A program made the translations under genes and the position numbers. From Candidatus Nomurabacteria bacterium (GTDB lineage: Bacteria; Patescibacteriota; Minisyncoccia; Phycocordibacterales; UBA9973), in NCBI GenBank assembly GCA_943350045.1, contig CALQZW010000003.1:1-34722 (forward strand): DNA of 34,722 nt. The letters run 5' to 3'. This document shows, piece after piece, positions 1,505 through 26,257 of this stretch. The notes under the pieces are model-generated. The model saw nothing but the letters and a program-made list of their open reading frames with translations, was not told the origin of the DNA and ran no database searches. Each line of letters begins with the position of its first letter. The stretch's first letter is position 1.

Positions 1505-1546
1505 ATGGTGGGTATAGTATCAGAAAATAAGGGTGTTTGCTATTTG

Positions 1547-1574
1547 TTGACTAATATACCTAGTGTAGTATACT
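1547..1574 (+). promoter_or_regulatory. Sigma70-like promoter TTGACT-N16-TATACT with overlapping inverted repeat TACCTAGT-N7-ACTAGGTA (1557-1579)
   Basis: -35 TTGACT 1547-1552, -10 TATACT 1569-1574; perfect 8-bp inverted repeat overlaps the spacer and -10. Confidence 0.65.
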
Positions 1575-1586
1575 AGGTAAGTACCT

Positions 1587-1636
1587 CCTGTCGCTTCGGT
1601 GGCAGGACGCGAAACCGCAACTTATGTTGCGGTTTC
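1587..1636 (+). other. Structured leader: cUUCGg-capped hairpin plus 11-bp perfect hairpin
   Basis: CCTGTCGC-TTCG-GTGGCAGG (1587-1606, two G-U pairs) followed by GAAACCGCAAC-TTAT-GTTGCGGTTTC (1611-1636). Confidence 0.6.
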
Positions 1637-1661
1637 TGCATTTTATAATAAAATATTGGGA

Positions 1662-2208
1662 ATGAAAGTGTACATCTATATTGACGGATTTAATCTCTAC
1701 TACGGCTGCCTAAAAGGCACGCCGTACAAATGGCTGAACCTTCAGAAACTCTCTGAGCTCTTATTTCCTAGTCACACCATAGCTAAGATAAAGTATTTTA
1801 CTGCTCCTATAAAAATTCGAGAGAACGATCGAGACCACGGCAAGCCAAACAGACAGCAGATCTATCTCAGGGCACTTCGTACCATTCCTGGACTGGAAAT
1901 TATTCAGGGGTCATTTCTCAGTCATGTAGTCACCATGCGAAACGCAGATAGCAAAGGCTACTCACGGGTTATTAAAACAGAGGAAAAAGGTACTGACGTA
2001 AACATAGCTTCTCATTTAATTAATGATGGTCATTCAGGAATTGAAATTGCCGGTAGTCGTAGTAAGCCCTTTTGAGAGAAATACAATTGAATTAAAAAAG
2101 ATAGCTACACTATGTAAGAAGATACGTAAAGGTGTGCTTCAAGCAAGTCAGTTCAACTCTACGCTTACCGACACTATTGGAGAAATCACTCGTCCTAACC
2201 AGTGGTAG
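1662..2208 (+). pseudogene. NYN (PIN-like RNase) domain protein, apparently disrupted by an internal deletion/frameshift
   Basis: MKVYIYIDGFNLYYGCLKGTPYKWLNL...RQQIYLRALRTIPGLEI...VIKTEEKGTDVNIASHLINDG is NYN N-terminus; the frame stops at 2075. The family C-terminus (VIQELKLPVVVVSPF...LTDTIGEITRPNQW) continues in another frame to 2208, and the expected SNDSDL-type segment is absent. Confidence 0.7.
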
Positions 2209-2232
2209 TTGAATCGCTTCCCGACGATTCCA

Positions 2233-2266
2233 CAAAAAAAATCCCCGCCAAATATGACGGGGATTG
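2233..2266 (-). terminator. Intrinsic terminator of the 2288-3571 gene
   Basis: Minus strand: AATCCCCG-TCATATTTGG-CGGGGATT followed by a T run. Confidence 0.85.
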
Positions 2267-2287
2267 ATACTATTTACAGCACTACAC

Positions 2288-3571
2288 TTAATCCATATAC
2301 CGTGGAGGTATCGGGATTATATCTTCATCACTTGTATTCTTGTTAAATGTCTTAACAAGAAACTGCACATACTCTTGGACCCTCAATACTCCTTTTACTG
2401 AAAGCAGAACATTGTCTGTTTCTTTCAGTTTCGCTATTTTCTTCATCATTGTCTGATGGTTATATTTAGGACTTGTCGTCATAAAATATATAGCTTCGGC
2501 AAAGTTTCTGGTTTTCCATCCACTTGGATGATACTTCGCAAAGTCATTCATGACTACTGCACGTTTCTCTGCCTCTACAAGCTCTGCTTCTGTTATCTGT
2601 AGTTGTTTATTATTAAAGATATTCTCAGAAGCCTTTTTACCACGCTTAATTCGATTGCCTTTAAATAACACTTCACAACTCGAGAGATCAAACGGATGCT
2701 TATCAAAAAATTTCTTGAATATCACATACGCAGAAATTCCTTTTTTAGCATACGAGATAAGAAAATCGAGAGCTGTCCAGTTTTTGTTGTTCACGTTATA
2801 GACCGTAACTTCATCCATTCCCCATCCAACCATAATCCTAAAATGAATACTGAGATTATTCCTAATCGCAGTTTCAATTCGATGCTGAGCATCAATCTCT
2901 TGTAGACGCTCATTAACAAAAGCTTCAGTATACAGATAACCGTGAGTCTCATACGAATCTTCCAATGATTCAATGTGAGATTCAATAATCTCCCTATTCT
3001 CATCAAACTGACTGAAGTACTTTTTGAGTACTTCTGGTGGCGCTAAATACACATTAAACGCCCCATTCTCACTTAATGCGACAATTTCACACATTGCGAG
3101 AATGCCTCGAAGAGGTGTTCCTTTAATCTCCGCATCCAGCATTTCTTGGGTAAGTGGTAACACCTCCCTCATAACGATATTCCGCGGTTTTTTTGGCGGT
3201 TGTGGCTTGTATATTTCTGCCGGAGAGAAACGTGTGCCATCTGAATGAACAGGAAGTGTTCCTTTTTTCTCATCTTCATCGAATTGATCAGTAAAATCAA
3301 CGCGAAGTATTCCATCGATAGGTTCGCCATGAAATGTTACATTGAGGTGCTTGTAGTCTGTGGACAAAATAGTCCAAATAGCCCCTTTCTTTGTATTTGC
3401 CTCTAACGTTGTAGCAAATGTCGAAGTGAGCTTCATTTCGAATATTAGGTCAGTGTCGTCATCAACAATACTCAATGAGTAGTCGTGTGGTAAGTTAACT
3501 CCTTCTTTTTCAAGAAGAGCAATCATGTTTTGTGTGTAGCCTTCTAATGTAGTTTTTAATGAAATGTTCAT
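2288..3571 (-). CDS. Hypothetical protein, 427 aa
   Basis: Long ORF MNISLKTTLEGYTQNMIALLEKEG... followed by a terminator; no family recognised. Confidence 0.8.
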   Translation of the reverse strand: MNISLKTTLEGYTQNMIALLEKEGVNLPHDYSLSIVDDDTDLIFEMKLTSTFATTLEANTKKGAIWTILSTDYKHLNVTFHGEPIDGILRVDFTDQFDEDEKKGTLPVHSDGTRFSPAEIYKPQPPKKPRNIVMREVLPLTQEMLDAEIKGTPLRGILAMCEIVALSENGAFNVYLAPPEVLKKYFSQFDENREIIESHIESLEDSYETHGYLYTEAFVNERLQEIDAQHRIETAIRNNLSIHFRIMVGWGMDEVTVYNVNNKNWTALDFLISYAKKGISAYVIFKKFFDKHPFDLSSCEVLFKGNRIKRGKKASENIFNNKQLQITEAELVEAEKRAVVMNDFAKYHPSGWKTRNFAEAIYFMTTSPKYNHQTMMKKIAKLKETDNVLLSVKGVLRVQEYVQFLVKTFNKNTSDEDIIPIPPRYMD

Positions 3572-3656
3572 TACCGTATGTTTTTTTGGTTCAAAAACAT
3601 ACTAACACAAAGTTAGATTTCGTCAAGACAAACAGCCCCAGCAGAATAGACTGCAC

Positions 3657-4979
3657 TTATAAAACCCTCTTCAAGATACCTCCACCATACTGCATAGTCT
3701 GCGCCTTCATATCTTCAAAATCACGAAACGTAGCATTCTCGCCCACTGATCCAAACGGACTGTTACTACGAATCTCAAAGACATCTCCACCCTTCGGAGA
3801 CAAATACGTTCGCGGAGCAAACGGCTTCCACAAAAGCGGATTAAACACGAGAAGATTCCCATTGGCTCCAACAACGCAATCGTCGGACCAGACATCGCGA
3901 TAGATACCCTCATATTTCTCCACGTTCACCTTTTTCTCTGCCGGAGCCATCTCCTCTATCCACGAAATCAAACTCAAAATACTTGTTGCAAACACATCTG
4001 CCGAACCATCTAAGCAGTTTGTAAATACAACGACACTGAGCTTCTCTTTTGGAACATACAGGGAATTGGTAATGAACCCGTTATATCCCCCACCATGGCA
4101 GACAAACTGCATACCGCTACTGCTATCACGCTTGAAACCGAAACCATAGGCAAGAGTTCCAGTAATCTTTTTAAACGAAGACGCCAAGAGCGCTTGGGAT
4201 TTCTTACTCAGTACTTTTGATTTCTCTCCCCATACATCACAGAGGAATATGTCGATATCTTTTGCAGTCGACACAAATCCAGCCGCCGGAGCAAACTCAT
4301 TCGTCTTTGATTGCGCAAATGCATACTGTTTTTGATTAAAGAGCTTTCTGGAATATCCACGCGCAGTTCGTGATTTCAAATCGTCGGAATAATCAGGATA
4401 CGTATCTTTGAGCGACAGCTTTGCAATGATGTTCTTGTGCACATATTCTCCATATGACTGGCCGGACACTGCTTCAATGATTTTTCCAAGAATTGCAAAG
4501 CCGAAGTTTGAATACTTAAACTCCTTGTTTTCTTCTGTGACTTTCGTGCCAAAAGAAATATCACTGAGGACATCAGTAGGAAATGCATTCTCGTTCCAAT
4601 AGTTTTTTCCAGAATCGCGGAATACGCCAGATCTATGCTGAAGAAGGTTCTTGATGGTAATTGTTCGAAGCGAATCAGTATCAAACTCAGGAATGATTTT
4701 TGAGACTCGAGTACTGAGCGTAATGCTTCCTTTTTCTATAAGCTGGAGAATTGCAACACCGGTAAACATTTTTGACATTGAGGCAACACGAAAGAGTGTC
4801 TCGGTAGACATGGGAGTTTTTGCCTTTGTGTCGGCAAAACCGAAGGCATTGTCGTAGAGCGTCTTTCCACCGCGGGATATGCGAACAACGACTCCAGGAA
4901 TTTCTTCCTGCTGGATTTTGTATGGGAACCAAAAGTTGAGGGCTTTGGTGAGGGGGTTTTGGAGTTCTGAGTGATTCAT
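3657..4979 (-). CDS. Serine hydrolase, class C beta-lactamase / penicillin-binding-protein-like
   Basis: 440 aa; SxxK motif in LFRVASMSKMFTGVAILQLIEKG, LLQHRSGV, YSNFGFAILG (Y-x-N), HGGGYNGF. Confidence 0.9.
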   Translation of the reverse strand: MNHSELQNPLTKALNFWFPYKIQQEEIPGVVVRISRGGKTLYDNAFGFADTKAKTPMSTETLFRVASMSKMFTGVAILQLIEKGSITLSTRVSKIIPEFDTDSLRTITIKNLLQHRSGVFRDSGKNYWNENAFPTDVLSDISFGTKVTEENKEFKYSNFGFAILGKIIEAVSGQSYGEYVHKNIIAKLSLKDTYPDYSDDLKSRTARGYSRKLFNQKQYAFAQSKTNEFAPAAGFVSTAKDIDIFLCDVWGEKSKVLSKKSQALLASSFKKITGTLAYGFGFKRDSSSGMQFVCHGGGYNGFITNSLYVPKEKLSVVVFTNCLDGSADVFATSILSLISWIEEMAPAEKKVNVEKYEGIYRDVWSDDCVVGANGNLLVFNPLLWKPFAPRTYLSPKGGDVFEIRSNSPFGSVGENATFRDFEDMKAQTMQYGGGILKRVL

Positions 4980-5029
4980 ACGAAAACTATATCATGTTCA
5001 TCAATAGGAAATCTTGACGCCATCAATTA

Positions 5030-8000
5030 CTACAACGCCACGAAATCAACAGAGTTAATTTGCTGCATTATTCTTTCTGTCTCCATAAGTACAACTACCA
5101 TTTTCTGGTAATGCAATATGTCCTCGTTCGAAAGAGTTCTCCCTTGACGGTCTTTAAGCCATTTTTGAGCAGGTTGGTATCCACCAATATAAAAACTCCA
5201 AACTACTTCCGGAACTCCTCCAAAATACTGTTTTTCGTTTATATACACCTTACTGTCTTTATATTTTGGATATTTTGCCTCAACAGTATTATTTCCTGAT
5301 TCTGGAAAAGTTGTTATAAAGCTATTTATTTTTGGAGACTCGAGCAAATGGAATTCTCGCAATTCCTTGCCAAGTGCAACTAGTTTTTTAAAAGTTTCAA
5401 CACTTGTTGGATATGGAACACGAGGGAAATCAATCTTCAAAAACTCCTTGTATTTTTCTCGATAGCTTGGAGAATGCAATATTGCATAAATATAATCCAG
5501 AATGTCTTCCGGTGTTGTTTTACCAACCACAGATTCAATTTCATTCACAATCTCCTTTTTTAGATTTGATACTTTTGATCCATCATCTGCATAGAGGTAG
5601 AGTGGAAACACAGACATTGAATCGCCCGCAGTATCTAGCAGGTGTCGATCTGTAATAAGTTTTGAGATAAAGAAATAACCGAGACTCGACTGTCTATTTT
5701 TAGAAGTAACATTTAATGCGATATTTGACTGAAGAAGATGCTTCATTACATTAAATCTGGAATTGCAGACAAATCCATTCTGTTTCCCTGTGTAATATAT
5801 GTCTCGAATATCGAAAGGTCGGTAAGAAATCTGACGATAATTACTCTGATCATTAACGGTTGAAATAATATCCTCTTTTGCTCGAGAAATTTTCCAATCC
5901 CTTGCATCATTTGTGTGATATTTTGCAGATATTTCTTTTTCGCTAAGACGAGCAAAATCATTAATTACAAGCTCGAGCTCCTTCTTATTGAAATGTATAG
6001 TCAGACTGTCTCTGACAGACTCAACACCAGAGACTGATTCCTTAAAAATTTGATCCACATTAAATCCTTTCTCATATTCTACATTTGCAGAAAAATCCTT
6101 TGGTACAAAGAAAAAATACGGCTCAGAATAATTTAATTTACTCCACTTCATAGTCCCCACACCATCATTGTTGAGAGCCTCAAACTTAGCGTCTCTTTTC
6201 CCGTAGAGTTCTGCGTGATAAACATCTCCCCTTGAATCCAACCCTTTCTTCTTTCCCTCTTTCTTTATAAGTATGCTTATAGACACGCCTTGCATAATAT
6301 TGAAGACATTTTCGTCATTACCCCCATTGGGTGCTTTTTCTCTCTTCTTTGAGTTACCATGCAAATCAACAATATAAATTGAGTCGAAGGTCTCAAGAAG
6401 ATGTTTTCTCATCTGTCGGTGGGTAACACCATCTATGAAAGAGTTGTTCGTTATCATCGCTACAATTCCGCTTCCATTCTTTTCGATCAGGCTTTCAGAT
6501 AATCGGATGAATTTAATATAATCATCGTCAAGGTTTATCTTACGTTCATTCAAATCCTTTTTGTATTCTTTAATTAAGTCTTGTATCCACTCTCCTTTGT
6601 TTTGAGAGCTGACACTGTAGGGTGGGTTCCCCATCACTACCATTATCGGTAATTCATTCTTCACCTTATTCGCTTGATTCGATTCTTCGGTGATAGCCTT
6701 CCCGAGTCCGATATCAAAAAGAGTCTTTTCTTCTACCTCTGCCTTTTCAAGAGTGTTCGTCAAATACACACCCAATCGAGTGTTTTTTATTTTTGCTCCG
6801 GTTTCAGCAATAGTTGACGAAAGCTTGAGATGAGCAATTGTATACGATGCCATCATGAGCTCGAAGCCATGGAGTCGTGGCAAAAGATCCTCGTTTACAT
6901 ATGAAGACCAGCGGCCCTCCTGACCTTCAAAAGATTTCTTTATGTGAAGTATCGCTTCATTGAGAAACGTGCCTGTGCCAGTCGCCGGATCAAGCACCTG
7001 GACTTTATGAATCGGAACTTTATGCCTTTTACCTTGAATCTCCTTAACAATGTCTATCTTGGAGGCATCGGCAAGACCTTGCAGCAGATCAAACTCCTTT
7101 TTCAAAATATAATCTACCGCACGGACGATAAATCGAACCACCGGAAGAGGCGTGTAGAAAACGCCCATCTTCTTGCGCTCGGCAGAGTCGTATTCCTGGA
7201 GGAAGTCCTCATAGAAGTGAATGATCGGATCCTTGCTCTCATGAACTTTCCCAAAAAGATCGGTTTTATAATATTTGTGGATAATTTCTCGAACGTCTGC
7301 ATGGCTGAGTTCTTCGCACAGCTCATTCACGATATGTTCGATTCGGTTGTCAAAAGATGATCCGGCAATATGATTAAAGAACTCTCTCAAGAACGGATTT
7401 GACGGAGGTATGAGATCACGAGCTTCTTGTCGAGTGAAATTCTCCGGCGTCTTATCGTTGAACCTTGCGACAAACAGGCCGTAGACGATCGTCTGAGCAT
7501 ACATGTCTGCAAATTTTGTATGGTCAAGATCGGCAAGGAGGAGCTTCTTGATGACCCCGTACACTCCAAGTAAGTTCTCATTCCTGGGGTTCTTTTCATC
7601 TTCCAAGAATTTCTTTACGTTATCTCGAATACGACGAGCCTTCCCCGCCATAACTTTTGAAAGTACTGTGCCAGACTTGATCGGCTCTTTAGATTCTTTA
7701 ATGAACGCACCTATTGTGTCACTAAGAAGCTGAAATTGACCTTCCAGTATTTCAATGCCTTCTTTGTTTAATTTTCCTATGACTACGGAGTCACCATATG
7801 CTATGGCGTTTCTATAAAAACGAAAGTCGAGACCATTTGTCAAAATAATATTTGAATAACCGTAATAGCGAGTCATTTGCTCACTTTTCTCTATCTCATC
7901 AAGCGAGACGTAAACGTCTTTTGCTTCGGCGTACGCAACCACAGTCTTACCTTTTGTAAACACGAAGTCGGGCGCTCCAAACTCACTTCTTTTTGGTTCG

Positions 8001-8128
8001 TTATGAACCTTAAGCTCTGTGATTTTTTCGAACAACTCCTGAAGCGCCGGGCGATATGAGTGCTCAGTGGCATGACCACTATTATAGGTCTCGATTATTT
8101 TCTGAATAAATGTTGCAACGGGATTCAT
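5030..8128 (-). CDS. Type IIG / Type ISP-like restriction-modification enzyme (N6-adenine DNA methylase)
   Basis: N-terminal PD-(D/E)xK-like GAPDFVFTKGKTVVAYAEAKD, SAM motif VLDPATGTGTFLNEAI, catalytic GNPPYS, long C-terminal specificity region. Start taken at MNPVATFIQK; the ORF extends to 8215. Confidence 0.88.
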   Translation of the reverse strand: MNPVATFIQKIIETYNSGHATEHSYRPALQELFEKITELKVHNEPKRSEFGAPDFVFTKGKTVVAYAEAKDVYVSLDEIEKSEQMTRYYGYSNIILTNGLDFRFYRNAIAYGDSVVIGKLNKEGIEILEGQFQLLSDTIGAFIKESKEPIKSGTVLSKVMAGKARRIRDNVKKFLEDEKNPRNENLLGVYGVIKKLLLADLDHTKFADMYAQTIVYGLFVARFNDKTPENFTRQEARDLIPPSNPFLREFFNHIAGSSFDNRIEHIVNELCEELSHADVREIIHKYYKTDLFGKVHESKDPIIHFYEDFLQEYDSAERKKMGVFYTPLPVVRFIVRAVDYILKKEFDLLQGLADASKIDIVKEIQGKRHKVPIHKVQVLDPATGTGTFLNEAILHIKKSFEGQEGRWSSYVNEDLLPRLHGFELMMASYTIAHLKLSSTIAETGAKIKNTRLGVYLTNTLEKAEVEEKTLFDIGLGKAITEESNQANKVKNELPIMVVMGNPPYSVSSQNKGEWIQDLIKEYKKDLNERKINLDDDYIKFIRLSESLIEKNGSGIVAMITNNSFIDGVTHRQMRKHLLETFDSIYIVDLHGNSKKREKAPNGGNDENVFNIMQGVSISILIKKEGKKKGLDSRGDVYHAELYGKRDAKFEALNNDGVGTMKWSKLNYSEPYFFFVPKDFSANVEYEKGFNVDQIFKESVSGVESVRDSLTIHFNKKELELVINDFARLSEKEISAKYHTNDARDWKISRAKEDIISTVNDQSNYRQISYRPFDIRDIYYTGKQNGFVCNSRFNVMKHLLQSNIALNVTSKNRQSSLGYFFISKLITDRHLLDTAGDSMSVFPLYLYADDGSKVSNLKKEIVNEIESVVGKTTPEDILDYIYAILHSPSYREKYKEFLKIDFPRVPYPTSVETFKKLVALGKELREFHLLESPKINSFITTFPESGNNTVEAKYPKYKDSKVYINEKQYFGGVPEVVWSFYIGGYQPAQKWLKDRQGRTLSNEDILHYQKMVVVLMETERIMQQINSVDFVAL

Positions 8129-8255
8129 GTGATTTTTGTTTTTAAATCTGAATATAATCCTTACTGATTCAATCGTATTAATACTATACCCCATTTTTCG
8201 AGGCTTGGACACCATGGGTGTTGTATCGCCATAAAGTGAAGTCGGTTATCCCTCT

Positions 8256-9221
8256 TTATTTAGCTCGCGGATACTTATCGGTAGGAAATGATATTTCATG
8301 ATAAATACTATTCACTTGGTCATAATATTTATATCCATTGTAGTCAATACAAACAGTCCTAATTATGCTATCAGCATCTCGGGATGAACTCTTACCTGAT
8401 GCAGTTAAAATTATTTCCTGAGCTAGACTTATACTCTCTTCGTTCGATAGATAGTATTCACTTTTAACCTGCATGATTCCTGTGGTCTTAATAAGACCGA
8501 TCCTAAAAAGAATTTTTTCGGCAAATCTAAAAAGTCGAGTTCTATTAAGATCTTCCATGATCATTATGGAGAAAAATATTTTATATAGAACTTCATCATC
8601 AAGAAATTCCTTCCGCAAATACCTAGAATACCTTGCTTCATACTCACGGTACTTCCTAGTTAATGCAGTCGACCGCTTGAGCATGAAGTCATAACTGGAG
8701 TGAACAGTATTTAAAATATTATAGAAATAGATTAAAACGACAAACCAAATTTCAGTTCTAAAATTTCCGGCATCAGGCAAAATATAACTCAAGCCCTTAA
8801 CAAGAGCTGCTTTATAGAAAAAAATTGATATTAATATAGAAATAATATGAGAAGTGAAATATAGCTGTTTATTTACAAAGCCCCAATACCGATTCAGCAG
8901 GATAAAAGTGGTCTGAAGCAGAAAATAGAATACATTAACCCAGAGCAAATATTTAACGAGGTAATCTAAATGGAGATAATAGAGTCCAATTGCAACCGCA
9001 GAGATAAAGACCGCTGGAGTCATTACTCTCAGAAAAAAATTGAAACCTAGATTATTAACCTGACCAACAATATCGGACACATTAATATAACCATAACCTT
9101 TAGATTTCTCCCCGAGCTTGTTTATAAGAAAGAGCAAAAGAAGCCCTAATAATGCAGAAATAACATATCCACCCATGAGTGTCTGCCACTTATCTACAAA
9201 ACTTACCAATTCTGAGTTCAT
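8256..9221 (-). CDS. Hypothetical multi-pass membrane protein
   Basis: Several hydrophobic segments (YVISALLGLLLLFLINKLG, VFISAVAIGLYYLHLDYLV, LLWVNVFYFLLQTTFILL). Start taken at MNSELVSF; the ORF track start at 9263 is TTG. Confidence 0.75.
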   Translation of the reverse strand: MNSELVSFVDKWQTLMGGYVISALLGLLLLFLINKLGEKSKGYGYINVSDIVGQVNNLGFNFFLRVMTPAVFISAVAIGLYYLHLDYLVKYLLWVNVFYFLLQTTFILLNRYWGFVNKQLYFTSHIISILISIFFYKAALVKGLSYILPDAGNFRTEIWFVVLIYFYNILNTVHSSYDFMLKRSTALTRKYREYEARYSRYLRKEFLDDEVLYKIFFSIMIMEDLNRTRLFRFAEKILFRIGLIKTTGIMQVKSEYYLSNEESISLAQEIILTASGKSSSRDADSIIRTVCIDYNGYKYYDQVNSIYHEISFPTDKYPRAK

Positions 9222-9299
9222 ACCTAGATAATTTAACACACTTTTACTTATCCCCTTCTCCAATAGACTTTATGGCCATGTGCGGTATGTTATTCATGC

Positions 9300-9603
9300 C
9301 TGGATATACTAACCCACTATCTACAAGAAGAACTGACTGACCAGCTAGCTGCTCTCCTCGATAAAATATCCTTAGACGAAATTTGAATGAAGGAAAAGAT
9401 TAAAACCGAACTCGAACAGCACTAAAGATTCAATGAATCAGTACTCGGAATGAAGAGTGCCGAGAAAATTAAAGTAAAGGAAATCGATATCCGCAACTAT
9501 GCTAAATATATACTCAGAGAGAAAAGTATATGAGAGAAACGAGAACTACTGAGCCATCTAAGGAGTAAACTAATTCTGACAAATAAAAATATAGTTCTTC
9601 AAA
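9300..9603 (+). pseudogene. Degenerate C-terminal tail of a serine site-specific recombinase
   Basis: Single-frame conceptual translation LDILTHYLQEELTDQLAALLDKISLDEI*MKEKIKTELEQH*RFNESVLGMKSAEKIKVKEIDIRNYAKYILREKSI*EKRELLSHLRSKLILTNKNIVLQ with three in-frame stops; resembles C-terminal regions of large serine recombinases. Confidence 0.65.
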
Positions 9604-9604
9604 A

Positions 9605-11920
9605 CTACAACTTCCATTTTATATAACCACACGAACATTGCTTGAATTTATCATTAGCTAAATATGTTACTTCTTTTCCACATTTTTCACATGTAAATCT
9701 AGATAATGCTTTCTCGCAAACATCAATAAGTTTTGTTGCTTCGCTTTTAACAACATCAAACTCATGTGACGCTCTGTTTCCCCAAGAAATAATCAACCGA
9801 TCTGCCTCTTTAAGCTCTTCTAATGCTTCGTTAAACGTCTCATAGTTTGTTCCATCACGTTTAATCTGAAAACCACTTGCGGCACTCATCTTTTCTAAAA
9901 ACTCATGTCCAGTTCTGCCATCATTTCGTTCTCGGTGTTTATAGGGGAGATTAACTTGCAATGATTCTGCGAGAACTGCAAAAGAAGTATCAACAATCTT
10001 TCTAGCTGTATTACCAGCAGAATCAGGATAAGTTGATAACTGATTTCTTGCATCATCGAAAGTAAATTGTTTGGCCGACAATCTAATACCTATTTCTGGA
10101 CTCTCCCATGGCATGAACGTTTTAAACTCCCAATTTTTGGGATCCAATTGTTTTCTTAAATCTATATACCAATCTCTTTCATGAGTAAAAAGAATGACCT
10201 GCCTATCGGAAAATTCTTTATCCAGTAATTCTCCGACCATACCCCTGTGATTGCGATCAAAACTTACAACAACATCGTCAAGAATAATAGGATTATTTAT
10301 ATCCTTCTTTGCCATTGCTAGAAAAATACACAGGCCAAGACTATTCCTGTGACCTTCAGATAAGGTGAGTCTAGGAGAATCCTGTTCGACACCGTAAAAT
10401 TTCAACCCGATTTCTATTGCTTTATCTATATCAGTTGGAAGATTCAACCGTACATCTTCAACTTTCTCATCAGGATGCAGTATTCCCCACATTCTTGCTA
10501 TATCAGATGATATAGCACCAATAACAGAAGAAGCTTGAGCTCTAATCTGCTCTCTATAAAGCCTCTGCAGTGTTGAAACAAACAGAATGGAATTTTCCAC
10601 TGCGTCTACCTCTTTTTTTACGATTGAACCTCTTACTACCTCCTGTATAGTTTCAAGTTTTTCTTTGTCGGAGAGCAAAGCAGCAATATCTGACAAAGGT
10701 GTTGAAACTTCTTTTCCAGCACTTTCAACTAAGGTTTTCGTATTTTTTTCAATCTCGTTTAAAGCATCATCCGGGCATGACGCTCTTATGGCTTCGATTT
10801 CCAAATTATCTATATAAGTTACTACATCTGCATCCTGCGCCAATCTCCAATCCGCGATATGTGCTTGGCCCGCTAATCTTTTTAGATTTTGGAGACTTTC
10901 ACAAAGTATACTTAATTCCACTTTATAGGCATCGAAATTTTCAACAGCTTCTTTAAGAGTCTTCTCTTCTGATTCTACATGGTGAGAAAAATCAGTTGAA
11001 TGAATAGACTTACCACACGCAGGGCAGTTTATTTCTTCTTCTCTATTCTTATCTGAATAAGCAATTGCTGCTTTCAATACAGTGAGTTTTTCTGCTATTA
11101 AAGGTTGAGCAGATTCACCAAGTTTTATAGCAGCTGCTCGGACTTTGATTATAGAAGCGTCAACTCCTAATTTAGACATTTCAAGCAATGCTGCGTATCT
11201 TTTTTGCTCTTCAGATTGTTTACCAACTTTTGCTTCTAAAGCAAATAATGTCTCTGAAAGTATTTGACCTACAGTTTCCGTGGTAACCTTTTTATTACAA
11301 TAGAGTAAAAACAAATCAACCAGAATCGTCTTAAGTTCTTCCCATTTCTGATCTCCAAATAGAACTTTTCTCTTTTGGTTAATTTTTCCAAGATCAATCC
11401 TTTTTGCATCCAAGCCAGTTGAATTTGCTAAGCTCTTCTCAATTTTTCTTAAGTTTTCAGCAGTAACTTCTAAATGGCTTAAACCTAACAACGGAAGGAG
11501 CGCGGAATATTTATCACCTTTAGTGTCGGCGATAAAATCAGCAACTTCATTCTGTCGTAAGATAGTCCTTCTGTAGTCCCAGGACTTAAGATCTGAGACC
11601 GGAGGTGTTAGTGTAAATGTTCCACTCTTTTGGATTTTTGTTTCGACTAACGACCCATCCTCTAGCGTTATTGCTATTGAACCATTCTGACTTCCAGGAG
11701 TATGAGTATTAACGATTGCTCTTTCTTGCCTCTTGCCACTGTATTCATGTGCCAAGTGATTAATTTTTCCGTCTTTAATATTGTATTCAACTGCATCAAC
11801 AAACGAAGACTTACCAGATCCGTTCTCACCATATAACACCAATGATTTGGCGTTTAACTCAAGTTCAATAGGATCAGCAGATCCTCTAAACCAGCCAATT
11901 TTGATACTTTTAATTCTCAT
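9605..11920 (-). CDS. AAA/ABC-type ATPase (RecF/SMC/Rad50-like) with zinc-hook-like CPAC and C-terminal zinc ribbon
   Basis: 771 aa; Walker A YGENGSGKSS, signature LTLSEGHRNSLGLCIFLA, Walker B NPIILDDVVVSFD, H-loop ILFTHERDW; Cys pairs CPAC and CEKCGKE...CSCGY. Confidence 0.88.
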   Translation of the reverse strand: MRIKSIKIGWFRGSADPIELELNAKSLVLYGENGSGKSSFVDAVEYNIKDGKINHLAHEYSGKRQERAIVNTHTPGSQNGSIAITLEDGSLVETKIQKSGTFTLTPPVSDLKSWDYRRTILRQNEVADFIADTKGDKYSALLPLLGLSHLEVTAENLRKIEKSLANSTGLDAKRIDLGKINQKRKVLFGDQKWEELKTILVDLFLLYCNKKVTTETVGQILSETLFALEAKVGKQSEEQKRYAALLEMSKLGVDASIIKVRAAAIKLGESAQPLIAEKLTVLKAAIAYSDKNREEEINCPACGKSIHSTDFSHHVESEEKTLKEAVENFDAYKVELSILCESLQNLKRLAGQAHIADWRLAQDADVVTYIDNLEIEAIRASCPDDALNEIEKNTKTLVESAGKEVSTPLSDIAALLSDKEKLETIQEVVRGSIVKKEVDAVENSILFVSTLQRLYREQIRAQASSVIGAISSDIARMWGILHPDEKVEDVRLNLPTDIDKAIEIGLKFYGVEQDSPRLTLSEGHRNSLGLCIFLAMAKKDINNPIILDDVVVSFDRNHRGMVGELLDKEFSDRQVILFTHERDWYIDLRKQLDPKNWEFKTFMPWESPEIGIRLSAKQFTFDDARNQLSTYPDSAGNTARKIVDTSFAVLAESLQVNLPYKHRERNDGRTGHEFLEKMSAASGFQIKRDGTNYETFNEALEELKEADRLIISWGNRASHEFDVVKSEATKLIDVCEKALSRFTCEKCGKEVTYLANDKFKQCSCGYIKWKL

Positions 11921-12113
11921 TGGTTTTTATTGGCTCCGTTAATTTTTGCAACAAATCCTCAGTCAACTGTTTTAGAGAAGAGGAGTTCAACTCCGTTTTG
12001 TTCAAATCTGAACTTAAAAAAGTACCAATCCTTAAAACAAGAGCGTCTGAGACATCTGGGTTAAGCTTTTTTCCTTCATCTATAATTTGTTCTTGTTCAG
12101 ACTTTTCGGCCAT
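11910..12113 (-). CDS. Small 67-aa protein overlapping the ATPase start (putative partner)
   Basis: MAEKSEQEQIIDEGKKLNPDVSDALVLRIGTFLSSDLNKTELNSSSLKQLTEDLLQKLTEPIKTNEN; 11-nt overlap with the downstream ATPase start indicates translational coupling. Confidence 0.65.
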   Translation of the reverse strand: MAEKSEQEQIIDEGKKLNPDVSDALVLRIGTFLSSDLNKTELNSSSLKQLTEDLLQKLTEPIKTNEN

Positions 12114-12220
12114 AACTTATCTAAGAGTCATAATGTTATAACCCGACTTTACCATATTTTGTTTGCTTTTTCTAATTTCTGTTGTCTTTTACTTTAGAAA
12201 AACTTTATCTTTTTTTCACA

Positions 12221-12252
12221 ACTAAAAAGCACTCGAATGAGCGCTTTTTAGT
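12221..12252. terminator. Near-symmetric (bidirectional-type) terminator hairpin
   Basis: ACTAAAAAGC-A-CTC-GAAT-GAG-C-GCTTTTTAGT; 10-bp A/T-rich outer stem plus CTC/GAG inner stem. Confidence 0.65.
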
Positions 12253-12410
12253 TCTTTAACAGATATGACGTGCCTAGGTCGTTAGTACCTAAAACTTGAT
12301 TGCTGCCATTCTTGGAATAGAACTCTAGTCTTTTGCCATCTCTAGTAGGAGCAGGTCCAAGGAACAGATGTAATAAAAATATTTCAGTTTGGGTTTTTCA
12401 GAGTTTGTAT

Positions 12411-12446
12411 AAAAACACCCCGAGAATATATATTATTCTCAGGGTA
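12411..12446 (-). terminator. Intrinsic terminator after the beta-barrel gene
   Basis: Minus strand ACCCTGAGAATAATATATATTCTCGGGGTGTTTTTAT: GAGAATA/TATTCTC stem extended by CCC/GGG, then T run. Confidence 0.75.
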
Positions 12447-12459
12447 TTATTGTTTTCTG

Positions 12460-13452
12460 CTATACCTTCCACTGCACAAACATCCCCAAGAGCGGATTCT
12501 TTTGATACGAAACAAGAGCATCCGACGATGTGTACACTCTCCCCTCTATACGCACAGACAGATTGCTGTGCAGTTTTCGAGAGAGTCCGAGTGTTGCGTT
12601 GTAGATCGGGCTTGCAATACCCCAGACACCGGCATCGGAGAGATATTCTCCGCGCAGAGCGTAGGAATACTTTCCAGCGATTTTCTCGAGCGTACACGAG
12701 CCTGTGTGCCACGAAGTACTGCCATGTGTCCCATATCCACCGACGACGACACAGCGAACTGTGCGGGCAAGTGGTACTTCGAGCTCTGGTACAAAGAAAC
12801 TCATTGCCTTCTGTGGATCACCTCGCAAGGCTTCGTTGCCATACAACCCCGAAACACCAAACTTGTACCCTGTGCGTGGTTTCCATGCAAAGGAGAAGCC
12901 AGGAGAGAGACTGCCGTTGTTGTCGGCAATGTGTTGGAATCCGGTAAAGACTCCGAGCATGGCAGTAACTGTTCCTTTTTCATATGTCCCCGAAATGCCG
13001 GAGAGATAGTACGGAGAATAGTCGGAGGCCATGGCAAAGAGTGCAGTTGGGTTTTCAATGGACAGCGTTGAAAACGGTCCAAGAAATCCTGAGCCAAATA
13101 CTCCGGCGTTTAAACGAACATGCGGAGCGATGTCTACTGCCACTCGCGCATCATACAGATGGCGAAGGAGCTCCGGTTCGGCAGAATAGTTTTTCGTGAC
13201 GTAGGCGCCTGCTTGGAGGGCTACGACGCATTCAAAATTGCCACGGGTGGTGTCTTTGTACGAAACTCCGACAACTACATGGTTTACGGTAAATGTGTTT
13301 GCCTGGGCGTGTTGTACGGCCAGGGCGACGGCTGTGTCTTTTGCTTCTGTCGAGCGGAGATAGTACAGGTCGCCAGCGGTTTGAAGGCTGACTTGTGCAT
13401 CTACCAGCGCAGGAGAAAGAAGGCACAGGAGGAGTGTGAGTGGTTTTGTCAT
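12460..13452 (-). CDS. Outer-membrane beta-barrel (porin-like, BBP2-type) secreted protein
   Basis: Signal peptide MTKPLTLLLCLLSPALVDAQ; alternating beta pattern; segments such as NYSAEPELLRHLYDARVAVDI, SDYSPYYLSGISGTYEKG, GFSFAWKPRTGYKFGVSGLYGNEA, YSYALRGEYLSDAGVWG, and terminal MFVQWKV, as in Bacteroidota beta-barrel porins. ORF extends to 13521; start at MTK is more plausible. Confidence 0.7.
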   Translation of the reverse strand: MTKPLTLLLCLLSPALVDAQVSLQTAGDLYYLRSTEAKDTAVALAVQHAQANTFTVNHVVVGVSYKDTTRGNFECVVALQAGAYVTKNYSAEPELLRHLYDARVAVDIAPHVRLNAGVFGSGFLGPFSTLSIENPTALFAMASDYSPYYLSGISGTYEKGTVTAMLGVFTGFQHIADNNGSLSPGFSFAWKPRTGYKFGVSGLYGNEALRGDPQKAMSFFVPELEVPLARTVRCVVVGGYGTHGSTSWHTGSCTLEKIAGKYSYALRGEYLSDAGVWGIASPIYNATLGLSRKLHSNLSVRIEGRVYTSSDALVSYQKNPLLGMFVQWKV

Positions 13453-13556
13453 AGAACGATTTTTTCTATGTATCCCATTTCCGCACCGAAATGTCAAAAA
13501 TAGTGAGTACAGCATACGCAAATATGGTAGTTTTCCACAGAGATGTATGGGGAAAC

Positions 13557-13586
13557 TTGAACATTATAATCAAATTATGCTATAAT
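13557..13586 (+). promoter_or_regulatory. abiE promoter TTGAAC-N18-TATAAT
   Basis: -35 TTGAAC 13557-13562 and -10 TATAAT 13581-13586 upstream of the AbiEi ORF. Confidence 0.75.
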
Positions 13587-13625
13587 GTTTCTAGTTATTC
13601 CTAAAAATCGGAATAACTAGAAACA
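13586..13625 (+). promoter_or_regulatory. 16-bp perfect inverted repeat (8-nt spacer) between the -10 box and the abiEi start
   Basis: TGTTTCTAGTTATTCC-TAAAAATC-GGAATAACTAGAAACA; starts on the last base of the -10 and ends 1 nt before ATG 13627. Confidence 0.85.
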
Positions 13626-13626
13626 A

Positions 13627-14247
13627 ATGCAATATTTAGAGCTTAAAACCAAATTACGAGATTTCACTGTCTTTTCGATTAGTGACATAGAAAAAGTCGA
13701 CTCTTCGTTCCACAAGCAACGATTAAGTGAATGGCAGAAAAAGGACTATGTAAAAAAGATTTGTAACGGATACTATGTTTTTTCTGACGTTGAAATAAAC
13801 GAACCTGCCTTGTATGCCATTGCAAATAGAATATATGAACCGTCGTATATTTCTTTAGAGATGGCATTGTCTCTATACGGCATCATTCCCGAGGCGGTCT
13901 ATAGTGTCACTTCTGTCACCTCTCGAAAGACAAAAAACGTACACAGTCCGGTAGGAAGTTTTATCTATCGAAAAATACGTCCGGAGTATTTATTTGGATA
14001 CAGTATTCGTGAACATGGTGGGCTCTCCTATAAAATTGCCGATCTTGAAAAAGCTCTTCTTGACTATTTGTATTTAAATCCAAAAATAAACGACAGTGAT
14101 TCATTTGAAGGTGTTCGTTTTTCTGTTTCTGAATTGAAAGAAAAATTAAATAGAGAAAAGTTTACCAACTACTTGCAAGCTTTTGCAAATAAAGCACTCG
14201 AGCGTCGAGCAAGGAAATTTTTATCCTACCTAAACAACAATGCTTAG
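13627..14247 (+). CDS. abiEi: Type IV toxin-antitoxin system AbiEi-family antitoxin
   Basis: 206 aa; N-terminal winged-helix-like region (FSISDIEKV...RLSEWQKKDYVKKICNGYYVFSD), EPSYISLEMALSLYGIIPEAVYSVTSVTSRKT, ADLEKALLDYLYL. Confidence 0.88.
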   Translation: MQYLELKTKLRDFTVFSISDIEKVDSSFHKQRLSEWQKKDYVKKICNGYYVFSDVEINEPALYAIANRIYEPSYISLEMALSLYGIIPEAVYSVTSVTSRKTKNVHSPVGSFIYRKIRPEYLFGYSIREHGGLSYKIADLEKALLDYLYLNPKINDSDSFEGVRFSVSELKEKLNREKFTNYLQAFANKALERRARKFLSYLNNNA

Positions 14248-15016
14248 TCTACAAAACATTGAACAATACTATCCTAATAATCAAAAACCATTTAAACGAA
14301 ATATTTTACGGGAGTACTTACAATACAAGATTCTTGAAATCATCTTTAATTCTTCGTATGCACAAGATGTAATCTTTCTTGGTGGTACGGCTCTTCGTAT
14401 TGTATACAACAACAGTCGATTTTCGGAAGATCTTGATTTTGATAATTTCAATCTTACCGAAGAACAATTTGCTGATTTAGCTAATGAGGTAAAGAAGGGT
14501 CTTGAGTTACAAGGATACGAAGTAGAAATTAAGAACGTGTTCAAGGGAGCATATCGCTCGTATATTCGAATGCCGAAAGTATTATTTGAGAACAACATGT
14601 CGGATATGCAGGAAGAAAAAATACTCATTCAGATTGATACAGTCCCCCATGTATTTGATTATGCGAAAGATACAAAAATTCTGAGCAAGTTTGACGTGTT
14701 TACTCAAATATTTACTACCCCTATTGATATTCTGCTATCTCAAAAGATATACGCAGCACTCAATAGAAAAAGAGCTAAAGGACGCGATTTCTTTGACATA
14801 GTTTTCCTGATTCCACAAACTAAACCAAACTACGACTATCTAAAAGCGAAATTAAACATTGGGAACGCAAAAGAACTAAAGGATGAACTTCTTAAACAGA
14901 CAGCTGAACTTGATTTTACCGAGCTTGCAAAAGACATCGAACCTTTCCTGATTAATTTTGAGGATAGTAAGAAGGTAAGACTTTTTAGAGAATATATCGA
15001 GTCAGTAGAATTCTAA
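14240..15016 (+). CDS. abiEii: Nucleotidyltransferase AbiEii/AbiGii-family toxin
   Basis: 258 aa; FLGGTALRIVYNNSRFSEDLDFDNF signature; overlaps the antitoxin ORF by 8 nt. Confidence 0.92.
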   Translation: MLSLQNIEQYYPNNQKPFKRNILREYLQYKILEIIFNSSYAQDVIFLGGTALRIVYNNSRFSEDLDFDNFNLTEEQFADLANEVKKGLELQGYEVEIKNVFKGAYRSYIRMPKVLFENNMSDMQEEKILIQIDTVPHVFDYAKDTKILSKFDVFTQIFTTPIDILLSQKIYAALNRKRAKGRDFFDIVFLIPQTKPNYDYLKAKLNIGNAKELKDELLKQTAELDFTELAKDIEPFLINFEDSKKVRLFREYIESVEF

Positions 15017-15031
15017 CCCTATTCTGAATGT

Positions 15032-15062
15032 CAAAAAAAACGGCGAGTATGTACTCGCCGGT
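15032..15062 (-). terminator. Intrinsic terminator downstream of the 15080-15574 gene
   Basis: Minus strand CGGCGAGTA-CA-TACTCGCCG followed by TTTTTTTT. Confidence 0.85.
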
Positions 15063-15079
15063 TAATATGTTTTCCATCG

Positions 15080-15574
15080 CTATTCCGATGGAGGGTCTGG
15101 GACCATGTCTTCAACTCTAAGAATTTCCTGCCGTATTCGCTCGGTAATTGCTTGCCAAGTCAGTGCCTCACCAAGATACCCACTGAGTGAATATGTGGTA
15201 TTTTCTATACCGTATTCATCATCACATTCAAAGTCTGTAATGCAGAATGCTTTTTTCCCATAGCAGAACAAATAAATGTTCTCTAACGGAAAATCTGCAT
15301 GGACTTCTCCTGGGACAGAGTTCCACAGGAGCATAAAAGCAACATTTGTAGACAATGGCCAACCATCGAGAACAATGGACTCTTTTCGTCCGAGTTGTTC
15401 GATAACCTTCTCCTTGTACAGATCCAAGAGTCCTTGATTAACATCTCGGTAGACTCTGATTCTTGGAGAGAGATTTTTTAAATAGTCTACCCACCTGAGA
15501 CGATTTGCTTCGTCTTTTTGTGCAATCGTTTCCAGAGCTGGTGGTTCTGGTACTAATGATTCGTCGTTTTCCAT
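15080..15574 (-). CDS. Hypothetical protein, 164 aa
   Basis: ORF followed by a terminator; no recognised domain. Confidence 0.7.
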   Translation of the reverse strand: MENDESLVPEPPALETIAQKDEANRLRWVDYLKNLSPRIRVYRDVNQGLLDLYKEKVIEQLGRKESIVLDGWPLSTNVAFMLLWNSVPGEVHADFPLENIYLFCYGKKAFCITDFECDDEYGIENTTYSLSGYLGEALTWQAITERIRQEILRVEDMVPDPPSE

Positions 15575-15610
15575 TACGTGAGTTTTTTTGTGAAAAAAAA
15601 TATTTTGGTA

Positions 15611-16111
15611 CTACTTACTTTTTTTTGCTGTTCGTGGGACCACGACACGCAGAGCGTATTTACTACTCCACGAAATGGGACTATCGAACGGATGCCTCGA
15701 AACGCTCAGACCCAATGGGTAATTGTAAATCAAAGCAACCCGATACTGGCCCGCTCTCTTGTACAAGAAGAATGTCGCATTACCGCCCGGCTTTAGCCAT
15801 GGCGTGTACCATTCTGCGAATAACATAATTTGTGCCTGTGTTAGACACAACTCATCCAGATTGCTTGATATCGAACTAAAAATTGCTCGAAAATCACCAT
15901 CCGTACGTAATTCATAGACGTCATGTATCTGCTGACTTGTAGGCAGAGCAGAAGCGTCTGTATCATCGATTTCCGTATCTTCATCGAGGCCCATCGGAAA
16001 AAGATGTGTACTGTTTTCAAATGTATCTTTCCCATCGGAAGAAGGGATCAATAACATGTGGTCTTTAGTGAGCAGCTGTAAATACGCTGTTTCCAAAATG
16101 CTTGCTTTCAT
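15611..16111 (-). CDS. Hypothetical protein, 166 aa
   Basis: ORF upstream of and co-directional with the 164-aa gene; LTQAQIMLFAEWYTPWLKPGGNATFFLYKRAGQYRVALIY pattern. Confidence 0.7.
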   Translation of the reverse strand: MKASILETAYLQLLTKDHMLLIPSSDGKDTFENSTHLFPMGLDEDTEIDDTDASALPTSQQIHDVYELRTDGDFRAIFSSISSNLDELCLTQAQIMLFAEWYTPWLKPGGNATFFLYKRAGQYRVALIYNYPLGLSVSRHPFDSPISWSSKYALRVVVPRTAKKSK

Positions 16112-16176
16112 ATTCTATGTTTTTAAGTTTTAAAGAATGAATATTGATATATAACAACATTTAGCGAGTAAAGTCA

Positions 16177-16209
16177 ATAAAACCACAGAATGACATTCTG
16201 TGGTTTTAT
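16177..16209. terminator. Near-perfect palindromic terminator
   Basis: ATAAAACCACAGAATG-A-CATTCTGTGGTTTTAT between two minus-strand genes. Confidence 0.8.
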
Positions 16210-16226
16210 AGTGCGCATATAGCAAT

Positions 16227-16535
16227 TTATTTCGCCCCCATCATGAGCTCCATCAGCGGAGCGAGCTCTTCACGATATTTTGCAATATCTGATTTGTACT
16301 TTGTCATAACGGCAACCATTGCGTATTGCTCTGGCATTCCAGACTTTGTCTTTTCTTCCATTTCTTTCTGGATTTTCTCGAACAACTCCTTTACTTCTTT
16401 GTTATCCTGCAAGACCTTCAATTTCTCAGCGAGTGCTGGATTTGCAGAGAGTTTCTCTGCAATCATTTCTGCCTGGTCTTTCGATACTCCCTTTGCTTGC
16501 AATGCCTTTTTTATCAAGAATGATTTTATACCCAT
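16227..16535 (-). CDS. Hypothetical helical protein, 102 aa
   Basis: MGIKSFLIKKALQAKGVSKDQAEMIAEKLSANPALAEKL...; own promoter and terminator. Confidence 0.75.
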   Translation of the reverse strand: MGIKSFLIKKALQAKGVSKDQAEMIAEKLSANPALAEKLKVLQDNKEVKELFEKIQKEMEEKTKSGMPEQYAMVAVMTKYKSDIAKYREELAPLMELMMGAK

Positions 16536-16590: not shown

Positions 16591-17826
16591 ATGCCGACAG
16601 TAGCGCCACAGAAAGAGCCGACTCGCATCCTCATTGTAGGAGGTGGATTTGGAGGCGTTCGTACTGCTCTAAACCTCCGCAAGCAAAACTTGCCGAATGT
16701 AAAAATAACTCTCCTCTCTGACAGGCACCACTTTGAATACACTCCGGCGTACTACAAAATAGCAGCGGGTACGTCGCCGATGGAGACCTGTATTCCCCTC
16801 TCCGATATTTTTCCTGACCGTAGCGTTGAAGTAATCGTCGACACCGTTGTCGCCGGCGATACAAAAGAACATGTTATTTTCGGAGCAAGTGGTTCCCGCT
16901 ATCGCTACGACTACCTTGTACTCGCACTTGGAAGCGAAACTGCATATTTTAATATTCCTGGAATTAAGGAGCACTCGTATTCTATTAAAACAATCGACGA
17001 GGCGCTTCGCTTGAAGGCGCACGTGCATGAAGTGTTCAATTCCCATCACGGAATGTCTGTGTTTGAACTGATGTCGCAGTTTCAGTTCGTCATCATCGGT
17101 GGCGGACCTGCAGGAGTTGAGCTTGCCGGAGTCTTGCGTGCATATCTGCGCACGCTGGCTCGTATACACGAAGTCCCAGAGCGCTTTGTGACAGTGAATC
17201 TCCTCCAAGGTGCTCCACGTCTTTTGCCGACGATGAACGAAGAAGTTTCTCGCCGAGCGCTCAAGCGACTCGACTCGCTCGGTATCAACATCATTCTCGG
17301 AAAGGCAGTGGCTGGCGAAGACGCTATTGGCGTATACCTCAAAGATATCGGCTTCTCTGCTCGCACAATTATTTGGACCGCCGGAGTAAAGGCAACGAGT
17401 GTGTATGAAAAAATTACCGGACTCACCCTTGAGAAAAATGGCCGTATCGTAGTAAACGAATCCATGATGGCCGTTGGCGTGCGTGACGTCTTCGTTCTCG
17501 GCGACAGTGCAAGCACTCCGTTTGCCGGAACTGCGCAGACTGCTATTTACGATGGCCACTATATCGCCTCAGCGCTCACGTCCCGCCTCCGCCGAATGAA
17601 TCTGCCGAAGTACAGTCCAAAGCCAACTCCGTACGTAATTCCTGTTGGAAACAATTGGGCGATTTTTACTTTCAAAAATATTACGCTCTCGGGCCGAATC
17701 TTTTTCTGGCTCCGCGAGATCATCGACCTACGCTTTTTCATGAGCATCTTGCCGTTTAAAAAGGCATGGTTTGCATGGCGTAGTGGCGGGACGCAAGTTG
17801 AGTCATGCCCAAATTGTAAACACTAA
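16591..17826 (+). CDS. NAD(P)/FAD-dependent oxidoreductase, type II NADH dehydrogenase-like
   Basis: 411 aa; FAD motif RILIVGGGFGGVRTALNLRK, HHFEYTPAYYKIAAGT, second Rossmann FVIIGGGPAGVELAG, VFVLGDSA; C-terminal CPNCKH. Confidence 0.9.
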   Translation: MPTVAPQKEPTRILIVGGGFGGVRTALNLRKQNLPNVKITLLSDRHHFEYTPAYYKIAAGTSPMETCIPLSDIFPDRSVEVIVDTVVAGDTKEHVIFGASGSRYRYDYLVLALGSETAYFNIPGIKEHSYSIKTIDEALRLKAHVHEVFNSHHGMSVFELMSQFQFVIIGGGPAGVELAGVLRAYLRTLARIHEVPERFVTVNLLQGAPRLLPTMNEEVSRRALKRLDSLGINIILGKAVAGEDAIGVYLKDIGFSARTIIWTAGVKATSVYEKITGLTLEKNGRIVVNESMMAVGVRDVFVLGDSASTPFAGTAQTAIYDGHYIASALTSRLRRMNLPKYSPKPTPYVIPVGNNWAIFTFKNITLSGRIFFWLREIIDLRFFMSILPFKKAWFAWRSGGTQVESCPNCKH

Positions 17827-23553: not shown

Positions 23554-24411
23554 TTAGAATGGAATAGTATCGGACGACTTTGATTTTGAAGCGAGTTTCT
23601 TTTTTAGTGATCGCTTGCCAGCTTCGAGGCGCTGAATCTTTCTCGAGAGCTGATGCACGCGAATGGCCAGAAGGATAATACAGATGATGAGTATCAAGAA
23701 GGCGCTCCCACCATAGAGAACATATCTATCTGAAAGAAGTGTGATAAACGAGAATCGCGGGGCTTTTTGTGGAGCTGGTTCGCTTTGAGTTGAAATAGGA
23801 ACTTCAGGCTCAGGAACTATCGGCGTTGGCTCTATCGGAGCCGGCTCGATTGGCTTAGGCTCAGGTGGAGCAGTTTCTTTTGGTTTCTCAGTCTCTATCG
23901 GAGCCGGTAGAAGCGTAAAGCTTGCAGAGCCGAGGGCATTTGTAATGTCACTTCCCTCTCCATCATTTGCTAAAATGAGACCATTTGAAAACTTCACCAT
24001 AGCAACGCCCTCTTTCTTTACTCGAAACGTAACAGTGAATACAGTTCGTGGAGCACCTTGATATCCAGAGAGTGAAATTCCTTCAAAACGTATACTACCC
24101 GACCCCGGTGTGTAAATTGGACCGTCAGCTCCTGGCGGTAGCCAGTTTGTTAGAAGTGAGCCAGACTTACTTACTGAAACAACAGAGAGAAGGTCTGCGG
24201 GATATGAAAGCGTTCCGCTAATTGCGTTCAGCGGAGCTGAATAGCTTGAGGCACGCACTGTTACAGAAAATGTTTTTCCTTCAGTGTATGATCCTGTTGC
24301 AGGAAACACAGAAAGCATAGCCGCCTGAGATATCTGCGGAAAGAAAAACAGCAGTGCAAGAAAAAGACTACTTGCTACTTTTTTCGCATGAGCTTTTGTA
24401 TGGACTTCCAT
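23554..24411 (-). CDS. Membrane-anchored cohesin-like domain protein
   Basis: Signal peptide; AMLSVFPATGSYTEGKTFSVTVRASSYSAPLNAISGTLSYPADLLSVVSVSKSG...GAPRTVFTVTFRVKKEG (cohesin-like); Pro-rich linker, TM and basic tail. Overlaps the upstream gene end by 37 nt. Confidence 0.8.
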   Translation of the reverse strand: MEVHTKAHAKKVASSLFLALLFFFPQISQAAMLSVFPATGSYTEGKTFSVTVRASSYSAPLNAISGTLSYPADLLSVVSVSKSGSLLTNWLPPGADGPIYTPGSGSIRFEGISLSGYQGAPRTVFTVTFRVKKEGVAMVKFSNGLILANDGEGSDITNALGSASFTLLPAPIETEKPKETAPPEPKPIEPAPIEPTPIVPEPEVPISTQSEPAPQKAPRFSFITLLSDRYVLYGGSAFLILIICIILLAIRVHQLSRKIQRLEAGKRSLKKKLASKSKSSDTIPF

Positions 24412-25292: not shown

Positions 25293-25296
25293 ATAA

Positions 25297-26214: not shown

Positions 26215-26225
26215 AGAGTAACGCA

Positions 26226-26251: not shown

Positions 26252-26257
26252 TTTTCT

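What the first reader, a model, noticed from the sequence alone, without database searches (positions are those of the whole stretch)
12460..13452. Bacteroidota-like outer-membrane beta-barrel protein in a presumably monoderm CPR genome
Signal peptide plus porin-like beta-strand pattern, with blocks (NYSAEPELLRHLYDAR, SDYSPYYLSGISGTYE, YALRGEYLSDAGVWG) that resemble BBP2/OmpL-type Bacteroidota porins. CPR bacteria are generally thought to lack an outer membrane. The gene is bracketed by terminators and looks more GC-rich than the adjacent abiE genes. It could be horizontally acquired, perhaps from a host, and retargeted, for example as a secreted pore.
Basis: partly seen in the sequence, partly recalled or inferred. 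Interest (0 to 1): 0.75.

Follow-up and report, generated by a model that had tools for sequence, protein, structure and literature searches.

The report
Bacteroidota-type porin gene in CPR genome
A tiny, reduced bacterium that shows no detectable machinery for building an outer membrane carries one intact gene for an outer-membrane pore protein of the Bacteroidota kind, apparently picked up by gene transfer into a variable defence-gene island; what it does there, if anything, is not known.

Summary
It belongs to Pfam BBP2 (PF07642, E=7e-27, 95 bits against a cut-off of 26.2). AlphaFold2 gives a signal helix and 16 strands matching 16-stranded general porins (Omp32, OmpF). Sequence relatives lie in Bacteroidota and Ignavibacteria, at 38% identity or less. 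No other genome among 100 close relatives or 387 class members has the family; one other phylum genome, G186, has a different subfamily. The gene sits in a ~14.7-kb island between ychF and NDH-2. In a sister genome only a conserved 102-aa gene separates those two; other sisters carry different cargo there. The AbiEii gene to its right is 73% identical to a CPR gene. A chimeric contig is therefore unlikely. Gene GC (52%) stands sharply above its flanks (30-38%) and genome genes (44±3%). Omp85/BamA was not found here or in G186.

Best reading: a horizontally acquired BBP2 porin, intact, carried as island cargo. If made, it would be Sec-exported, but the cell has no detectable machine to assemble it. 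Delivery to a partner's outer membrane is possible but unshown. A known protein kind in an unexpected host.

The parts
12460..13452 (-). BBP2 (PF07642) porin gene, 330 aa, start ATG at 13452, stop at 12460-12462; signal peptide about residues 1-19 (..LVDA|QVSL)
   Evidence: translation; Pfam E=7e-27; AF2 16 strands, pLDDT 73.9, pTM 0.73; PDB porin matches. Cleavage site by eye.
12414..12448 (-). intrinsic terminator just after the porin stop: 15-bp stem followed by a run of U
   Evidence: RNA fold -20.4 kcal/mol, z=-6.3
13495..13522 (-). Bacteroidota-like promoter candidate TTTG-N16-TATTTTTG upstream of the porin start (weak lead)
   Evidence: TTTG at -70 and TATTTTTG at -50; 0 of 109 other genes of this genome have the pair at 15-23 spacing; chance about 0.005; consensus TAnnTTTG/TTTG from PMC7366714. 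Not found upstream of the Hymenobacter homologues.
13586..13625 (+). perfect 16-bp inverted repeat directly before the abiEi start codon; likely AbiEi operator, not a porin terminator
   Evidence: I17; fold; promoter-like TTGAAC-18-TATAAT at 13557-13586
13627..14247 (+). abiEi antitoxin, right-hand neighbour
   Evidence: PADLOC AbiEi 9e-63
14240..15016 (+). abiEii toxin, CPR-type (73% identical to another genome of the same class)
   Evidence: PADLOC 1.8e-94; search of the class
9605..11920 (-). SMC/RecF-like ATPase, Lamassu LmuB-like, left-hand neighbour
   Evidence: Pfam SMC_N 1.2e-16; PADLOC LmuB 2.6e-27
5030..8215 (-). Type IIG/ISP restriction-methylation enzyme in the same island
   Evidence: Pfam 1.5e-84; PADLOC
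1505..16226 (.). variable island (about 14.7 kb) holding the porin, inserted between ychF (389-1504) and the conserved 102-aa gene (16227-16535) plus NDH-2 (16591-17826)
   Evidence: same flanks adjacent, without cargo in G003; other cargo in G002 and G005; masked in G004

Best explanation
The gene is a genuine BBP2-family general porin of Bacteroidota/Ignavibacteria type, acquired by horizontal transfer and carried as a single-gene cargo in a variable defence island of a CPR (Patescibacteria) genome. The protein would be exported by Sec through its signal peptide and could fold as a 16-stranded diffusion pore for small solutes. This genome shows no detectable Omp85 to insert it, so it most likely does not act as a porin in the CPR cell's own envelope. 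It is best read as a fairly recently acquired, still intact passenger from an unsampled diderm donor; any pore activity would need the BAM machine of a diderm partner. Shown: family, fold prediction, position, foreign composition, isolation in the phylum, and no Omp85 hit. Inferred: transfer, recency, and lack of an own-envelope role.
For: BBP2 at 7e-27. AF2 16 strands and PDB 16-strand porins at E 3e-10. Relatives in 62 of 398 Bacteroidota-side genomes, Hymenobacter and Ignavibacteria loci, best identity 34-38% in the order of G872. Family in 1 of 101 relatives (this genome itself), 1 of 387 class genomes and 2 of 384 phylum genomes. Sister genomes have the same flanks without it. AbiEii neighbour 73% identical to a CPR gene. 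GC 0.519 against 0.441 sd 0.033 and codon likelihood in the 2.7th percentile; GC step at the gene edges. Omp85 absent from G000 and G186 while 7 of 14 controls ring.
Against: The branch to the window protein is very long (3.35 changes per column) and unplaced, which could also mean an old acquisition with fast evolution. No donor was found: a scan of 85,462 genomes with stretches of this protein found no near relative, and the second scan used seeds biased to Hymenobacteraceae. It keeps 38 of 70 near-invariant family residues, against 17 of 75 at positions that are 70-90% conserved, so it may be, or until recently have been, under selection. The genome is 86.6% complete, so a missing Omp85 is not proven.
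Confidence: 0.6

Rival explanations
1. The CPR cell secretes the porin and it is inserted by the BAM complex of a diderm partner (for example a Bacteroidota host) into the partner's outer membrane, making the host leaky to solutes the CPR cell needs.
For: Plain signal peptide and intact porin fold; near-invariant family residues partly kept; no Omp85 of its own; CPR dependence on prokaryotic hosts is stated in the abstract of PMC11809585.
Against: No host is known for this genome. No export or targeting feature beyond Sec was found. The C-terminus ends in V, whereas 104 of 124 homologues end in F and none in V, so recognition by BAM is uncertain. Present in one species only.
Confidence: 0.18
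2. Assembly or binning artefact: about 1.5 kb of Bacteroidota DNA joined into a CPR contig.
For: Single copy; sharp GC change at both edges; no close CPR relative; fragmented draft assembly of 41 contigs.
Against: A CPR-type gene lies directly to the right and both outer flanks of the island are syntenic with sister genomes. Two precise joins inside short intergenic stretches would be needed. Estimated contamination is 0.25%.
Confidence: 0.1
3. The protein works at the CPR cell's own surface, either in a cryptic outer layer or as a secreted barrel assembled without BAM.
For: A second genome of the phylum, G186 (2 contigs, 100% complete), carries a different BBP2 beside a multicopper oxidase, also without Omp85.
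Against: Omp85, generally needed for barrel insertion, was not found in either genome; almost no CPR genome has the family.
Confidence: 0.08

Closest known systems
BBP2 / OmpL-like putative beta-barrel porin-2 (Pfam PF07642), Hymenobacteraceae and Ignavibacteria members
   Same: Family profile over residues 28-312; N-terminal signal; SPYY, GNE, WH, R.E and R.EG motifs shared
   Different: At most 38% identity; 330 aa against a median of 364; C-terminal residue V instead of mostly F; 32 of 70 near-invariant residues lost; found in a CPR genome without detectable Omp85
General diffusion porins with 16 strands (Omp32, OmpF, PorB)
   Same: Predicted strand number and overall fold, TM up to 0.68 over the full length
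   Different: 7-12% sequence identity; model confidence moderate (pLDDT 73.9); trimer and pore properties not tested
BBP2 of phylum member G186 (C2:61687-62664)
   Same: Same Pfam family in a reduced genome of the same phylum without Omp85
   Different: At most 27% identical to any row of the tree and not grouped with the window protein; next to a multicopper oxidase and near core genes, not in a defence island

Membership tests
BBP2 porin (PF07642) | profile match over the curated cut-off | tested here: met
   95 bits against 26.2, residues 28-312
BBP2 porin (PF07642) | N-terminal Sec signal peptide | tested here: met
   MTKPLTLLLCLLSPALVDA|Q by eye on the sequence; helix 3-11 in the model; no dedicated predictor run
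BBP2 porin (PF07642) | closed transmembrane beta-barrel | tested here: inconclusive
   16 strands and full-length porin matches in a prediction of moderate confidence; pairing of first and last strand not inspected directly
BBP2 porin (PF07642) | C-terminal aromatic residue (beta signal); usual but not a strict criterion | tested here: not met
   ends FVQWKV; 104 of 124 homologues end in F, 12 in L, none in V. Some true members lack the aromatic residue, so this does not exclude membership
BBP2 porin (PF07642) | outer-membrane location and pore activity | not testable with these tools
   needs experiment
Diderm envelope (would make it an ordinary porin) | Omp85/BamA in the same genome | tested here: not met
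   none at E<=0.1 in G000 (86.6% complete) or G186; 7 of 14 controls positive
Diderm envelope (would make it an ordinary porin) | Lpt, Tol-Pal, secretin or other outer-membrane markers | not tested
Secreted host-targeted effector | export to and insertion in a partner membrane | not testable with these tools
   no host known

The most novel reading that the evidence does not exclude
The CPR cell exports a captured porin that its diderm host's BAM machine installs in the host's outer membrane, making the host permeable for the episymbiont's benefit; a second, unrelated BBP2 in G186 would be a parallel capture.
Probability: 0.15. Interest if true: 0.88.

Novelty: new member of a known kind. Interest (0 to 1): 0.5.

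Why it matters
CPR bacteria are generally treated as monoderm, and how they obtain nutrients across a host's envelope is largely open. An intact porin gene in such a genome is a clean, testable case. Either it is a transient passenger that shows how freely diderm genes enter CPR islands, or it is a protein aimed at another cell's outer membrane. The second, independent BBP2 in G186 makes a phylum-wide survey of orphan outer-membrane barrels in genomes lacking Omp85 worthwhile.

Tried and rejected
Plus-strand reading of the coordinates: rejected, stops in frame. Phage or plasmid cargo of known type: no phage match, and the only plasmid matches are Hymenobacteraceae porins at 27-29%. A near donor from pattern scans: none. 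PDB sequence searches gave only irrelevant weak hits, as did NCBIfam. Donor assignment by tree: unresolved, long branch. Viral-contig scans failed three times on the server side. Long imperfect repeats around the gene look like chance for a 15-kb stretch, so no transposon ends were claimed. The Bacteroidota-like promoter pair is kept only as a weak lead, because the homologues' upstream regions do not show it. The PADLOC library has no match for the porin.

Full report
Observation. The finding's coordinates hold a 330-aa open frame on the minus strand. All three quoted peptide blocks are present. Pfam BBP2 (PF07642) matches residues 28-312 with E=7e-27 and 95 bits against a curated cut-off of 26.2, so the family call does not rest on resemblance alone. 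It is the only copy in the genome.

Fold. AlphaFold2 on an alignment with 62 homologues gives pLDDT 73.9 and pTM 0.73, an N-terminal helix and 16 beta strands between residues 20 and 329. Foldseek against solved structures returns 16-stranded general porins over the whole length: Omp32 E=3.4e-10, then PorB, OmpF and others, mostly TM 0.55-0.68. The alignment is made of Bacteroidota and Ignavibacteria homologues, so the prediction leans on them. Closure of the barrel was not inspected directly.

Relatives. tblastn finds relatives in 62 of 398 evenly drawn genomes of the phylum of an Ignavibacteria hit, a Bacteroidota-side sample, 22 of 243 in the order of the best of these at E<=1e-20, identity 29-38%, and 17 of 199 in the class of the Ignavibacteria hit. 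Named loci are almost all Hymenobacter, plus two Ignavibacteria and two other Bacteroidota, but the seeds came from Hymenobacteraceae and so bias that list. In a maximum-likelihood tree the window protein has an end branch of 3.35 changes per column and no supported neighbour. The donor is therefore a Bacteroidota-like lineage at best, not a named taxon. Of 70 columns that are at least 97% conserved in the homologues it keeps 38, against 17 of 75 at columns that are 70-90% conserved. The frame is intact. Both point to selection in the recent past, in donor or recipient.

Host genome. The window is contig C3 of a 627-kb, 41-contig draft genome, 86.6% complete and 0.25% contaminated. I take it as CPR/Patescibacteria because the listed members of its genus, class and phylum samples are 0.5-1.2 Mb genomes estimated near complete; this is inference, since no names are given. 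The family is absent from 100 relatives and from the other 386 class genomes, and among 384 phylum genomes appears only here and in G186.

Locus. In sister genomes the genes that flank the island are close together. G003 has ychF, the 102-aa gene and NDH-2 in a row with nothing added. G002 has a P-type ATPase between them, G005 an acetyltransferase and a peptidase-like gene, and G004 a long stretch that reads N. In the window the same interval holds about 14.7 kb, including a HEC-09-like gene, a type IIG restriction enzyme, an LmuB-like ATPase, the porin and an AbiE pair. So the porin sits in a variable island. The AbiEii to its right is 73% identical to a gene of another genome of the class; the left neighbour's affinity was not tested. 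A chimera would need two joins, both in short intergenic stretches of an otherwise syntenic CPR contig. I give that about 10%.

Composition. GC of the gene is 0.519 (GC3 0.514) against 0.441 sd 0.033 (GC3 0.39 sd 0.05) for 110 genes of the same genome, and codon likelihood falls in the 2.7th percentile. In 100-bp steps GC rises from 0.38 to 0.44-0.59 within the gene and falls back to 0.30-0.32 outside it. This fits a single-gene insertion that has not been ameliorated.

Envelope. Omp85 (PF01103) is not found in this genome or in G186 at E<=0.1, while 7 of 14 control genomes ring. PMC8871954 notes that the rare CPR described have a monoderm cell wall and treats the BamA family, taken broadly, as possibly essential to all diderms. 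With 13% of the genome missing, absence is likely but not proven.

Mechanism and rivals. Best reading: a horizontally acquired porin, intact, carried as island cargo, exportable by Sec but without its own assembly machine, so most likely not a working porin of this cell. Main rival: the protein is delivered to a diderm partner whose BAM inserts it. The C-terminal residue is V, unlike any of 124 distinct homologues, of which 104 end in F; this weakens the rival but does not exclude it. A donor-like promoter pair TTTG-N16-TATTTTTG lies 50-70 bases upstream. It is rare in this genome (0 of 109; chance about 0.005; consensus in PMC7366714), but it is not seen upstream of the homologues and was sought after the fact, so it is only a lead.

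Second case. G186 (1.2 Mb, 2 contigs, 100% complete) carries a stronger BBP2 match (E=2.6e-47) on a 526-kb contig next to a multicopper oxidase and near Mur ligase, F1-ATPase and glutamyl-tRNA synthetase genes. It too has no Omp85 hit. It does not group with the window protein. Two unlike captures in one phylum make the matter more interesting than a single stray gene.

Verdict. Real, and well supported as a BBP2 gene of foreign origin in a CPR genome; host origin and retargeting are unproven. The protein kind is known, the setting unexpected.

Noticed in passing
G186:C2:61687-62664 (L003, L006): Second BBP2 porin in a complete genome of the same phylum, with a signal peptide, beside a multicopper oxidase; no Omp85 found in that genome.
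   Followed up: partly
window 8256-12113, minus strand: LmuB-like SMC ATPase (771 aa), preceded by a 67-aa frame overlapping its start and followed by a 335-aa membrane-protein-like frame without Pfam match: possible Lamassu-like defence operon with an unrecognised effector.
   Followed up: partly
window 13586-13625: Perfect 16-bp inverted repeat with 8-nt loop immediately before abiEi, likely the autoregulatory operator of the AbiE toxin-antitoxin pair.
   Followed up: partly
window 1505-16226: The ychF/NDH-2 interval is a cargo hotspot in the genus: empty in G003, P-type ATPase in G002, acetyltransferase plus peptidase-like gene in G005.
   Followed up: yes
window 28486-34626: 2046-aa repetitive surface-type protein on the minus strand, next to smaller exported proteins in a row (23554-28432).
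   Followed up: no
window 16177-16209: Perfect 16-bp inverted repeat with 1-nt spacer at the right edge of the island, near the conserved 102-aa gene.
   Followed up: no
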